Source: Deltaproteobacteria bacterium
GTDB lineage: Bacteria > Desulfobacterota > WTBG01 > CAIYCZ01 > CAIRTM01
Assembly: GCA_024276465.1 (NCBI GenBank)
Contig: JAJRXD010000017.1
Coordinates: 1 to 44,430, forward strand
Length of the DNA stretch: 44,430 bases
Direction of reading: 5' to 3'
Within the stretch, counting starts at the first letter, position 1. Each line of letters begins with the position of its first letter. Below, one piece after another: positions 4,493-18,853 of this stretch. The notes beneath the pieces are model-generated. The model saw only the letters and a list, made by a program, of their open reading frames with translations. It had not been told where the DNA came from and did not search any database. Both the position numbers and the translations under genes were made by a program.

Positions 4493-4712
4493 AGGCTGTA
4501 ATACATGTTTACAGAAAAAGCAGCAGGGGTCTATCCCTCCCCGAAAGCAAGTTCTTTTCAAACCCGTTTTTATCATCTGCTGTGTCAAAGTCCTGTTTTG
4601 ACAGTATAAATCTTTTTTTAAAAAAGAGAAGAATTTAATTTATATTATATAGAATTAATGATACTATCAATAAACTGCTAAGGCATGTCGGTCAACTATT
4701 GATTAATTCAGG
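4493..4712. other. Intergenic region between sbcC and the RRM gene
   Basis: About 220 bases without an ORF lie ahead of the leader hairpin. A perfect -35-like TTGACA is at 4598-4603, but no good -10 box lies at standard spacing. A strongly AT-rich tract (4620-4665) follows. It probably holds the promoter and the long 5' leader of the RRM gene, which is common for cold-shock genes, but the start site cannot be fixed from sequence. Confidence 0.4.
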
Positions 4713-4741
4713 GTGCCTGGTTTTTCGGCACTGCTTTTTTT
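4713..4741 (+). promoter_or_regulatory. Terminator-like leader hairpin upstream of the RRM gene
   Basis: GTGCC (4713-4717) pairs with GGCAC (4727-4731) across a nine-base loop. Two to three bases later comes a run of seven T (4735-4741), then ATCAG. The form is that of an intrinsic terminator, yet it ends only 13 bases before the AAAGGAG ribosome binding site of the RRM gene. A very similar hairpin, T7 run and ATCAG stands before the DEAD-box helicase gene at 5122-5149. It could be the far terminator of sbcC, a transcription attenuator of the RRM gene, or both. Confidence 0.55.
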
Positions 4742-4767
4742 ATCAGCCTCAAAAAAAGGAGTTTCTT

Positions 4768-5040
4768 ATGAATATGTATGTTGGTAATCTGTCTTTCACC
4801 GTTAATGAAGATGACTTGAAACAGGCTTTCTCCGAGTTTGGTAAGGTTGAAAGTGCTAAGGTTATAATGGATAAATTTTCCGGGCAGTCAAAGGGGTTTG
4901 GCTTTGTTGAAATGCCAAGTAATTCAGAAGCTGACAAAGCAATTAAAGCCCTGAATGGTAAAGACCTGAAGGGAAGAAACATAAAGGTAAACCAGGCACA
5001 ACCTACCGGCGACCGTTCTTCACGCAGATCGAGGTATTAG
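4768..5040 (+). CDS. Small RRM-domain RNA-binding protein
   Basis: A single RNA-recognition-motif protein of 90 residues, of the type that acts as a cytoplasmic RNA chaperone and is often cold-inducible. RNP2 (MYVGNL, residues 3-8) and RNP1 (KGFGFVEM, residues 42-49) are both intact. The tail after the RRM is short and Arg/Ser-rich (RSSRRSRY). The start is set at 4768 because an AAAGGAG ribosome binding site lies at about 4755-4761 and the protein then begins directly at the first beta strand. An in-frame ATG at 4699 would add a leader that crosses the hairpin at 4713-4741 and is rejected. It is followed by a DEAD-box helicase gene with a matching leader element, which suggests joint regulation. 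Confidence 0.93.
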   Translation: MNMYVGNLSFTVNEDDLKQAFSEFGKVESAKVIMDKFSGQSKGFGFVEMPSNSEADKAIKALNGKDLKGRNIKVNQAQPTGDRSSRRSRY

Positions 5041-5121
5041 CTGCAGCTGCTTTATTAAGACTGATTCCCGGGCTTATCGGTTGTTAGTTTATATTAACCG
5101 TGAGCCATAAGATCCTCTGCT

Positions 5122-5149
5122 GTGCAGGGTTTCTGCCGGCACTTTTTTT
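5122..5149 (+). promoter_or_regulatory. Terminator-like leader hairpin upstream of the DEAD-box helicase gene
   Basis: GTGC (5122-5125) pairs with GCAC (5139-5142). The stem extends inward through AGG/CCG with one mismatch, and the loop is T-rich. A run of exactly seven T (5143-5149) follows, then CATCAG. It ends about 12 bases before the helicase start codon. It shares GGCAC, T7 and ATCAG with the element at 4713-4741. It may terminate the RRM transcript, attenuate the helicase gene, or do both. Confidence 0.55.
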
Positions 5150-5161
5150 CATCAGGTATGC

Positions 5162-6898
5162 ATGATGTCATCCGAAAATTCATTGCAAAGAAGTTTTAAC
5201 GAATTTGAGCTTGCCAAACCAGTGCTTAAGGTGATGGATGATGTGGGCTATGAAGTACCCACACCTATTCAGGCACTGACGATCCCACTTGTTCTGGCGG
5301 GAAAAGATCTGCTGGGCCAGGCCCAGACCGGAACAGGTAAAACAGCTGCTTTTGCTTTGCCATTATTATCACGCATAGATCTCAGCAAACCAAAACCCCA
5401 GGTGCTGGTTCTGACACCAACCAGGGAGCTGGCCATTCAGGTTGCAGAGGCTTTCCAGCGGTATGCATCACGCCTCAGGGCATTCCGCGTGCTTCCCATC
5501 TATGGTGGTCAGGCATACGCTGGCCAGCTGCGCCAGCTGGAGCGTGGCGTGCATGTGGTTGTTGGAACACCGGGGCGGGTGATGGACCATATGCGGCGCG
5601 GAACATTAAACCTGGACATGCTTGACTGCCTGGTTCTTGATGAAGCAGATGAAATGCTTAATATGGGTTTTCTTGAGGATGTTGAATGGGTTTTAGAGCA
5701 GATGCCTTCGGTCTGCCAGATCCTGCTCTTTTCAGCAACCATTCCCAGGGGTATTCGCAAAATTGCAAAGAAATACCTGAACAATCCGGAAGAGATTACC
5801 ATTCAGGTCCGTACTATTACAGCAGATACAATTAATCATCGTTTCTGGATGGTGAGCGGGCTCCATAAGCTTGATGCTTTAACCCGGATACTTGAGGCAG
5901 AACCGTTTGACGCTATGCTTGTGTTTGTACGTACTAAAATTGCCACGATGGATCTGGCTGAGAGGCTGGAAGCCCGCGGCTATGAGGCTGCTGCGTTAAA
6001 TGGTGATATCGCACAGAAAACCCGGGAGCGTACCATTGTAAAATTAAAAACAGGAAAGTTGGATATCCTGGTTGCTACTGATGTGGCGGCACGGGGACTT
6101 GATGTGGATCGGATCAGTCATGTTGTTAACTATGATATTCCCTATGATACCGAATCCTATGTACACCGCGTGGGCCGAACCGGGCGGGCCGGCCGCAGCG
6201 GAGAGGCAATTATGTTTGTTTCTCCACGGGAAAGACATCTGTTAAAAGCCATAGAAAAAGCAACAAGACAAAAGATCAGGATGATGAAGCTTCCTTCAAC
6301 AGAGGCAATTAATGACAAGCGCATTGCCCGTTTTAAACAGCGCATAACCGATACTCTGGCAGCAGAAGGCCTGGAGTTTTTTTCTGAGCTCATCAACCAG
6401 TACCAGCAGGAGCATAATGTTCCTGCACTTGATGTTGCTGCTGCACTGGCCAGGCTGCTGCAGGGCAGCAAGCCGCTGCTTTTGGAAAAGAAGCCTGTAG
6501 AGAAGCCTTTTTCTGAAAAGAAGTTCAAAAGGGAAAAGCTGCCTCAAAAGCGGAAGAAAAACAAAGAAGCAGCCTCGGAACAGGGCATGGAGCGGTTTCG
6601 TATTGAAGTTGGTGCTGTGCATGGTGTGAAGCCTGCTAACATAGTTGGAGCCATAGCTAATGAGGCTGGTCTTGATGGTAAACATATTGGAAGGATTGAT
6701 ATTAACGATGAATTCAGCACTGTGGACCTGCCGGAGGGGATGCCACAGAGTATTTTTCGCACTCTCAAAAAAGTCTGGGTGGCTGGGCAGAGGTTAAAGA
6801 TTTCGAGAGTGGCTGAATCTGAAAAAAAGCTGGTTCCTGAAAAAAAGGGCAAATCAACAGTAAAGGGTAACAGGAAATATTCTGCCGGGAAACGTTGA
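5162..6898 (+). CDS. deaD: ATP-dependent DEAD-box RNA helicase, DeaD/CsdA type
   Basis: Unwinds structured RNA in the cytoplasm; family members act in ribosome assembly and mRNA decay, especially in the cold. All helicase motifs are present: Q motif with PTPIQ near residue 38, motif I AQTGTGKT, Ia PTRELA, Ib TPGR, II DEAD, III SAT, V ATDVAARGLD and VI HRVGRTGR. A Lys-rich linker (about 440-475) leads to a C-terminal DbpA-type RNA-binding domain (about 475-555) and a basic tail, the architecture of CsdA rather than of RhlE. The start is chosen at 5162, with a weak AGG just upstream; the ATG at 5165 is equally possible. The gene lies 121 bases after the RRM gene. Confidence 0.95.
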   Translation: MMSSENSLQRSFNEFELAKPVLKVMDDVGYEVPTPIQALTIPLVLAGKDLLGQAQTGTGKTAAFALPLLSRIDLSKPKPQVLVLTPTRELAIQVAEAFQRYASRLRAFRVLPIYGGQAYAGQLRQLERGVHVVVGTPGRVMDHMRRGTLNLDMLDCLVLDEADEMLNMGFLEDVEWVLEQMPSVCQILLFSATIPRGIRKIAKKYLNNPEEITIQVRTITADTINHRFWMVSGLHKLDALTRILEAEPFDAMLVFVRTKIATMDLAERLEARGYEAAALNGDIAQKTRERTIVKLKTGKLDILVATDVAARGLDVDRISHVVNYDIPYDTESYVHRVGRTGRAGRSGEAIMFVSPRERHLLKAIEKATRQKIRMMKLPSTEAINDKRIARFKQRITDTLAAEGLEFFSELINQYQQEHNVPALDVAAALARLLQGSKPLLLEKKPVEKPFSEKKFKREKLPQKRKKNKEAASEQGMERFRIEVGAVHGVKPANIVGAIANEAGLDGKHIGRIDINDEFSTVDLPEGMPQSIFRTLKKVWVAGQRLKISRVAESEKKLVPEKKGKSTVKGNRKYSAGKR

Positions 6899-18822: not shown

Positions 18823-18853
18823 AAAAAAAGCCCGTTTTAAACGGGCTTTTTTT
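18823..18853 (-). terminator. Strong intrinsic terminator after leuB (bidirectional form)
   Basis: Two 15-base arms (18823-18837 and 18839-18853) are perfect inverted repeats: seven A, GCCCG, TTT, then the mirror image ending in seven T. On either strand this gives a GC-containing stem flanked by a U run. On the minus strand it lies 14 bases after the leuB stop and ends the ilv-leu operon. It also lies immediately before the efflux adaptor start. Confidence 0.93.

What the first reader, a model, noticed from the sequence alone, without database searches (positions are those of the whole stretch)
4713..5149. Twin terminator-like leaders on two cold-shock-type RNA genes
Directly seen: a GTGC(C)/(G)GCAC hairpin, a run of exactly seven T and then (C)ATCAG stands just before the start of the RRM gene (4713-4741) and again before the DEAD-box helicase gene (5122-5149). 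Each ends 12-27 bases from its start codon, too close to be only an upstream gene's terminator. Known: E. coli Csp proteins relieve intrinsic terminators, and CsdA melts RNA. Inference: the RRM protein or helicase could melt these hairpins and antiterminate both genes, making a cold-responsive feedback switch.
Basis: partly seen in the sequence, partly recalled or inferred. Interest (0 to 1): 0.62.

Follow-up and report, generated by a model that had tools for sequence, protein, structure and literature searches.

The report
Worn pseudoknot leader on RRM gene
The first 'terminator' is a worn copy of a knotted RNA leader found before small RNA-binding-protein genes in several bacterial phyla, probably a translation control, while the second, before the helicase gene, looks like an ordinary transcription terminator that is not kept in relatives.

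Summary
The letters are as described, and the two sites resemble each other more than shuffles do. They are nevertheless two different things. Site 1 (4670-4767, before the RRM gene) is a divergent copy of a conserved leader found directly before RRM genes in Desulfobacterota, Gammaproteobacteria, Nitrospirota, planctomycetes and others. The leader has a 5' hairpin (P0) and two interleaved helices, S1 and S2, that form an H-type pseudoknot. P0 and S1 correspond to Rfam RF01697 (Chlorobi-RRM). S2, with compensatory changes and its 3' strand 16-21 nt before the start codon in 38 of 39 leaders, lies outside the Rfam model. A covariance model built without the window finds 4670-4768 as its best match in 44 kb (30.6 bits, E 3e-5; next 14.2 bits). 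In that frame the T7 is the loop between S1 and S2 and 'ATCAG' is the S2 3' strand, pairing with CTGGT. The same genome carries an intact copy before a second RRM gene. Site 2 (5104-5149) does not match the model. It is a better hairpin (-11 to -14.5 kcal/mol) plus T7, probably the rrm terminator, and deaD orthologues in the same family lack it. Shared antitermination is not supported; a feedback leader on the RRM gene alone is plausible. Function is untested.

The parts
4670..4767 (+). Divergent RRM-leader (Chlorobi-RRM-like) directly before the RRM gene
   Evidence: Model R2, built from 37 leaders without the window: 30.6 bits, E 3e-5, next best in the window 14.2 bits. Model R3 with S1 instead of S2: 19.4 bits, E 0.016.
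4675..4691 (+). Position of the 5' hairpin P0; eroded here (CTGCTAA / ATGTCGG)
   Evidence: Alignment A2; several pairs are non-standard in the R2 alignment.
4694..4703 (+). S1 5' strand position (AACTATTGAT); most of the sequence is kept
   Evidence: Alignment A2; 6 of 10 S1 pairs remain.
4711..4721 (+). S2 5' strand (GGGTGCCTGGT); CTGGT 4717-4721 pairs with ATCAG
   Evidence: 8 of 10 S2 pairs kept, with the one-base bulge where relatives have it.
4712..4732 (+).
   Evidence: Fold -8.1 kcal/mol.
4724..4733 (+). S1 3' strand position (TTCGGCACTG); altered, so S1 is mostly lost
4735..4741 (+). T7: in the family frame, the loop between the S1 3' and S2 3' strands
   Evidence: Two relatives also have 7 T in the 8 bases after S1 (L043, L057); most have mixed sequence such as CAATCTCG.
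4742..4751 (+). S2 3' strand position (ATCAGCCTCA), ending 16 nt before the ATG
4756..4761 (+). Shine-Dalgarno AAGGAG of the RRM gene
   Evidence: Sequence.
4768..5040 (+). RRM protein, 90 aa
   Evidence: Pfam RRM_1 E 9e-26; paralogue in the same genome 82% identical.
5104..5149 (+).
   Evidence: Hairpin 5104-5140 -14.5 kcal/mol, or 5118-5141 -11.4 kcal/mol, then T7 at 5143-5149; no match to R2 or R3.
5153..5156 (+). CAGG, weak Shine-Dalgarno of deaD; explains part of the 'CATCAG' likeness
   Evidence: Sequence; orthologue starts align to the second Met, 5165.
5162..6898 (+). DeaD/CsdA-type DEAD-box RNA helicase, 578 aa
   Evidence: Pfam DEAD, Helicase_C, DeaD_dimer, DbpA.

Best explanation
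Shown: the RRM gene's leader (4670-4767) descends from, or at least matches, a conserved leader that sits directly before RRM genes in several phyla. That leader is an H-type pseudoknot, S1 interleaved with S2, preceded by a small hairpin, with the S2 3' strand 16-21 nt before the start codon. Inferred: because the pseudoknot ends at the upstream edge of the 30S binding site, it acts on translation initiation. The RRM protein is the likely ligand and would hold or open the pseudoknot on its own mRNA (negative feedback), as ribosomal protein S15 and T4 gp32 do on theirs. The window's copy has kept S2 but lost most of P0 and S1, so its control is probably altered or weakened, while an intact copy remains before the second RRM gene of the genome. 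The hairpin plus T7 before deaD is a different element, most likely the intrinsic terminator of the short rrm transcript.
For: Leaders of RRM relatives align (A2). The named structure forms 82% of cells, against 30-42% when slid and 73% when shuffled, and 0 of 500 shuffles reach its covariation score. Without the window, S2 alone pairs in 84.6% of cells (slid 29-53%) with 6 of 10 pairs changed on both sides, and S1 in 85.5% with 9 of 9. S2 3' end to ATG is 16-21 nt in 38 of 39. Specificity: R1 over 198 genomes of the phylum gave 7 matches, all directly before RRM genes (coordinates). R2 over 20 genomes gave one match each plus one extra, also before an RRM gene. Matches in a further genome sample, L221-L225, all lie before RRM genes. 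Window: R2 30.6 bits, E 3e-5 without the window in the model; profile HMM best match of 44 kb, E 0.071. Intact copy in the same genome: L016, R2 56.1 bits. Site 2: terminator-like folds; 20 of 78 RRM genes have a terminator-like site within 150 nt downstream, against 6 in reversed sequence, including the close relatives L029 and L030.
Against: In the window S1 keeps only 6 of 10 pairs and P0 is broken, so this copy may be decaying or refolded. A general pseudoknot search does not pick it out from its shuffles (11 of 60). No Rfam match at the gathering score. A minority of RRM leaders (36 of 107 had more than 3 of 60 shuffles as good) show no clear pseudoknot by that search. No binding, probing or expression data exist, so translation control and the RRM protein as ligand are inferences.
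Confidence: 0.72

Rival explanations
1. Twin attenuators: both hairpin-T7 elements are intrinsic terminators in the leaders of rrm and deaD, relieved in the cold by the RRM protein or helicase.
For: Both can be drawn as hairpin plus T7; the two stretches are alike (2 of 2000 shuffles); -8.1 and -11.4 to -14.5 kcal/mol.
Against: Not conserved: most RRM leaders have mixed sequence where the T run would be, deaD orthologues lack it, and site 2 does not match the RRM-leader models. At site 1 two bases separate stem and T run, and the T run can itself pair with AAAAAAAG before the Shine-Dalgarno.
Confidence: 0.08
2. Site 1 is a re-registered pseudoknot: the window's leader swapped the old S1 for GGUGC/GCACU, keeping the short S2 core CUGGU/AUCAG, and still works as a pseudoknot.
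For: GGCACT lies at the aligned place of the S1 3' strand and CTGGT lies in the loop of the new hairpin, free to pair with ATCAG. Pairing of the S2 5' strand with the S1 3' region is slightly commoner than chance across the family (1 of 300 shuffles, 19 of 300 swaps).
Against: Only one sequence has this form, so covariation cannot test it; the two helices leave almost no loop 1.
Confidence: 0.3
3. Site 1 is simply a decaying leader, no longer structured or regulatory, in a genome with a second intact copy.
For: P0 and S1 eroded; intact paralogue L016; in a same-family relative (L008/L088) the region between the S2 strands has shrunk to a plain hairpin by eye.
Against: S2 keeps 8 of 10 pairs, with the bulge and the spacing to the start codon.
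Confidence: 0.3
4. Site 2 is a lineage-specific copy of the 3' half of the RRM leader that brings deaD under the same control.
For: Sites 1 and 2 share GTGC, GGTTT, CGGCAC, a T run and ATCAG in order.
Against: Site 2 has no S2 partner for ATCAG, does not match the family (207 of 300 shuffles do as well), and its ATCAGG is the deaD Shine-Dalgarno.
Confidence: 0.08

Closest known systems
Chlorobi-RRM RNA (Rfam RF01697; Weinberg et al. 2010, PMC2864571)
   Same: Same place (directly before RRM genes) and same P0 plus S1 plan; three relatives' leaders (L056, L064, L096) pass the gathering score.
   Different: The 2010 table lists it for Chlorobi only. The Rfam model ends before the S2 3' strand and has no pseudoknot. 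The window's copy is not found by it.
Translational-repressor pseudoknots (rpsO/S15, T4 gene 32; from general knowledge)
   Same: H-type pseudoknot close upstream of the ribosome binding site of a gene for an RNA- or nucleic-acid-binding protein.
   Different: No sequence relation tested; ligand and repression are unproven here.
Intrinsic (Rho-independent) terminators
   Same: Site 2: G+C-rich stem followed within two bases by T7, downstream of a gene.
   Different: Unusually close to the next gene's Shine-Dalgarno.
Csp-relieved terminators and cold-shock leaders in E. coli
   Same: RNA-binding protein and helicase genes, as in cold-shock regulons; the RRM protein Rbp1 is needed for cold adaptation in Synechocystis (PMC9333190, abstract seen).
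   Different: No conserved terminator; no cold evidence for these genes.

Membership tests
Chlorobi-RRM RNA (RF01697) | Lies directly upstream of an RRM gene | tested here: met
   4670-4767, RRM start at 4768.
Chlorobi-RRM RNA (RF01697) | Rfam score at or above 45 bits | tested here: not met
   No match in the window; none above the cut-off in the genome. Therefore not filed as a member, only as a divergent relative.
Chlorobi-RRM RNA (RF01697) | P0 hairpin | tested here: not met
   Several of the seven pairs are broken in the window.
Chlorobi-RRM RNA (RF01697) | S1 stem | tested here: inconclusive
   6 of 10 pairs; S1 model 19.4 bits, E 0.016.
RRM-leader pseudoknot as defined here (alignment A3) | S2 pairing and sequence, model R2 | tested here: met
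   30.6 bits, E 3e-5, model made without the window; 8 of 10 S2 pairs.
RRM-leader pseudoknot as defined here (alignment A3) | S2 3' end 16-21 nt before the start codon | tested here: met
   Window included in the distribution; S2 3' strand ends at 4751, ATG at 4768.
RRM-leader pseudoknot as defined here (alignment A3) | Same features at site 2, before deaD | tested here: not met
   No match at E up to 10; no likeness above shuffles.
Autoregulatory translational repressor leader | RRM protein binds the leader and lowers its translation | not testable with these tools
   Needs binding and fusion assays.
Intrinsic terminator (site 2) | Stable G+C-rich hairpin directly followed by a U run | tested here: met
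   -11.4 to -14.5 kcal/mol, then T7.
Intrinsic terminator (site 2) | Transcripts end there | not testable with these tools
   Needs Term-seq.
Csp/helicase-relieved attenuator pair | Hairpin and T run conserved before both genes in relatives | tested here: not met

The most novel reading that the evidence does not exclude
RRM genes of several phyla carry one ancient pseudoknot leader that senses the level of the RRM protein (or temperature) and gates its own translation, and in this lineage part of it was copied to the neighbouring deaD gene, joining an RNA-binding protein and a helicase in one switch.
Probability: 0.07. Interest if true: 0.65.

Novelty: new variant of a known kind. Interest (0 to 1): 0.42.

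Why it matters
RRM proteins dominate RNA regulation in eukaryotes, but what their bacterial relatives bind and do is poorly known. A conserved, RRM-gene-specific pseudoknot at a fixed distance from the start codon gives a concrete RNA target to test. It widens a motif listed only for Chlorobi to several phyla and adds the missing second helix. The window itself is a minor, worn example; the broader leader is the useful part.

Tried and rejected
Rfam over the window and, at relaxed E-values, over 4500-5250: only chance matches. Exact-pattern search of the own genome for CGGCAC-T5-CAG: besides the two sites, four others; the most alike (L003) lies inside an aldo/keto-reductase-like gene, so it is chance. 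Pattern search in viral contigs: none. An alternative pseudoknot further upstream (ATCAATA/TATTGAT with AGGCAT/GTGCCT, about 4666-4719) can be drawn by hand, but its score is at the noise level of the pseudoknot search, so it was dropped. RF01697 over the nine genomes of the family: nothing above cut-off. The third-best model match in the own genome (L190, E 0.012) lies inside an unrelated coding sequence and is taken as chance. The whole genome was not available as a file, so genome-wide terminator statistics were not made. Searches around named loci failed until their genome handles were obtained. Chlorobi genomes themselves were not reached, so S2 is untested there.

Full report
OBSERVATION. 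Site 1 lies 4712-4746 before a 90-aa RRM protein gene (4768-5040). Site 2 lies 5118-5155 before a DeaD/CsdA-type helicase gene (5162-6898; orthologue starts align to the second Met, 5165). The proteins are right by Pfam. The two stretches align with a score of 30 against 15.4 +/- 2.4 for dinucleotide shuffles (2 of 2000). That is uncorrected for choosing the pair from 44 kb. Neither region folds better than its shuffles.

RELATIVES OF SITE 1. RRM relatives were fetched from named genomes (80 loci) and from the window's phylum (51 of 395 genomes with E up to 1e-28). Reading their leaders showed a recurring pattern before the start codon: GCCAAT..TTGGC, then CTATCGA TTAATT GTGCGTTGGTT ATTCGATAG ... 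ATCAACGCAC, then the Shine-Dalgarno. CTATCGA pairs with TCGATAG (S1) and GTGCGTTGGT with ATCAACGCAC (S2). The two are interleaved, which makes an H-type pseudoknot.

STATISTICS OF THE LEADER. On the alignment of 38 leaders plus the window (A2), the named structure pairs in 82.0% of cells, against 73.0% in column shuffles and 30-42% when the 3' strands are slid; 0 of 500 shuffles reach the covariation score. Without the window and its paralogue (A3), S2 alone pairs in 84.6% of cells (slid 29-53%) with 6 of 10 pairs changed on both sides, and S1 in 85.5% with 9 of 9. The end of S2 lies 16-21 nt before the start codon in 38 of 39 leaders, median 19. An independent pseudoknot search on 107 leaders found 67 with at most 1 of 60 shuffles as good. 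Caveats: the structure was read from these same sequences, related sequences inflate shuffle tests, and the sample was chosen by protein likeness.

SPECIFICITY. Model R1 (P0+S1; the window is one of its 39 rows) over 198 genomes of the phylum gave seven matches at E up to 0.01, all ending at an RRM start codon. Model R2 (P0+S2, no window row) gave one match in each of 20 genomes, most of which had supplied a row of the model, plus a second in one of them, also before an RRM gene. It gave matches in 8 genomes of 229 in a class-level sample; those not already listed, L221-L225, all stand before RRM genes, though L221 and L223 are the same as or very like sequences already used. No match at E below 0.9 falls in the 30 deaD loci, except the window's own RRM leader that lies inside L109.

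KNOWN FAMILY. Three leaders pass Rfam's gathering score for RF01697 Chlorobi-RRM, listed in Weinberg et al. 2010 (PMC2864571) for Chlorobi as a likely cis-regulatory RNA. The printed alignment shows that the Rfam model covers P0 and S1 and ends just before the S2 3' strand. So the pseudoknot and the wide spread are additions made here. Whether an unread supplement of that paper mentions a pseudoknot could not be checked.

THE WINDOW'S COPY. A2 aligns the window without difficulty: CTATTGATTAATT to CTATCGATTAATT, TGGTTTTTCGG to TGGTTATTCGA, ATCAG to ATCAA. Model R2 scores 4670-4768 at 30.6 bits, E 3e-5, with the next window match at 14.2 bits. With S1 in place of S2 (R3) the same place is best but weaker, 19.4 bits, E 0.016. 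A profile HMM without structure also ranks it first in 44 kb, E 0.071, although a shorter core-only profile ranks it second. Pair by pair, S2 keeps 8 of 10 and S1 6 of 10, and P0 is broken. So the window copy kept S2 and the spacing to the start codon and lost much of the rest. The GGTGCC/GGCACT hairpin is particular to the window; it may be a replacement for S1, which one sequence cannot prove. The same genome has a second RRM gene (82% identical protein) with an intact leader (56.1 bits).

SITE 2. It does not match the family (207 of 300 shuffles do as well). Its best folds are a 9-bp stem at 5118-5141 (-11.4 kcal/mol) or a longer one at 5104-5140 (-14.5), followed by T7. RRM genes often have a terminator-like site within 150 nt downstream: 20 of 78 against 6 in reversed sequence. 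The simplest reading is the rrm terminator, squeezed against the deaD Shine-Dalgarno (CAGG, 5153-5156). deaD orthologues of the same family (G007, G004, G003; 66-74% identity over the aligned part) lack it, and G012, which also has rrm followed by deaD, shows none by eye.

MECHANISM. Steps shown: a conserved structured leader, its specificity for RRM genes, its fixed place at the edge of the ribosome binding site, and the window copy's relation to it by sequence and S2. Steps inferred: control of translation initiation, and the RRM protein as ligand. Analogues known from general knowledge are the S15 and gp32 leaders. A cold link is possible, since the RRM protein Rbp1 is needed for cold adaptation in Synechocystis (PMC9333190, abstract), but it was not tested here. 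A bistable alternative, S2 5' strand against the S1 3' region, has only weak support.

VERDICT. Known kind, new variant.

Noticed in passing
5071-5106: Strong imperfect inverted repeat GGCTTATCGGTTGTTAG...TTAACCGTGAGCC (-16.3 kcal/mol for 5070-5112) between rrm and deaD, with no T run after it; it could protect the rrm mRNA 3' end.
   Followed up: no
L082:3751-4000: An RRM leader whose S1-S2 loop seems to be interrupted by an insert of over 100 bp; the S2 3' strand GCAACGCAC stands far downstream, next to the RRM start.
   Followed up: partly
L088 / L008 upstream of the RRM gene: In a same-family relative the leader appears reduced to a plain S2-like hairpin (GATTGTTGAT ATTCCTT ATTAACGATC, read by eye), as if S1 had been deleted.
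   Followed up: partly
L033, L034, L040 leaders: A 12-bp alternative hairpin (TTGTGCTGTTGA / TCAATAGCGCAA in L034) competes with the pseudoknot and could make it bistable.
   Followed up: partly
L066, L067, L072, L074, L081, L058, L077, L080, L083, L105; G012:C102; G024:C30: DEAD-box helicase genes lie close to RRM genes in several unrelated genomes, before or after them, so the pairing in the window is not unique.
   Followed up: partly
18829-18847: Near-palindromic GCCCGTTTTAAACGGGC with T runs on both strands: a bidirectional terminator candidate.
   Followed up: no
L001:659-865: A CspA-like cold-shock protein gene elsewhere in the same genome, found through a chance pattern match; its leader was not examined.
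   Followed up: no
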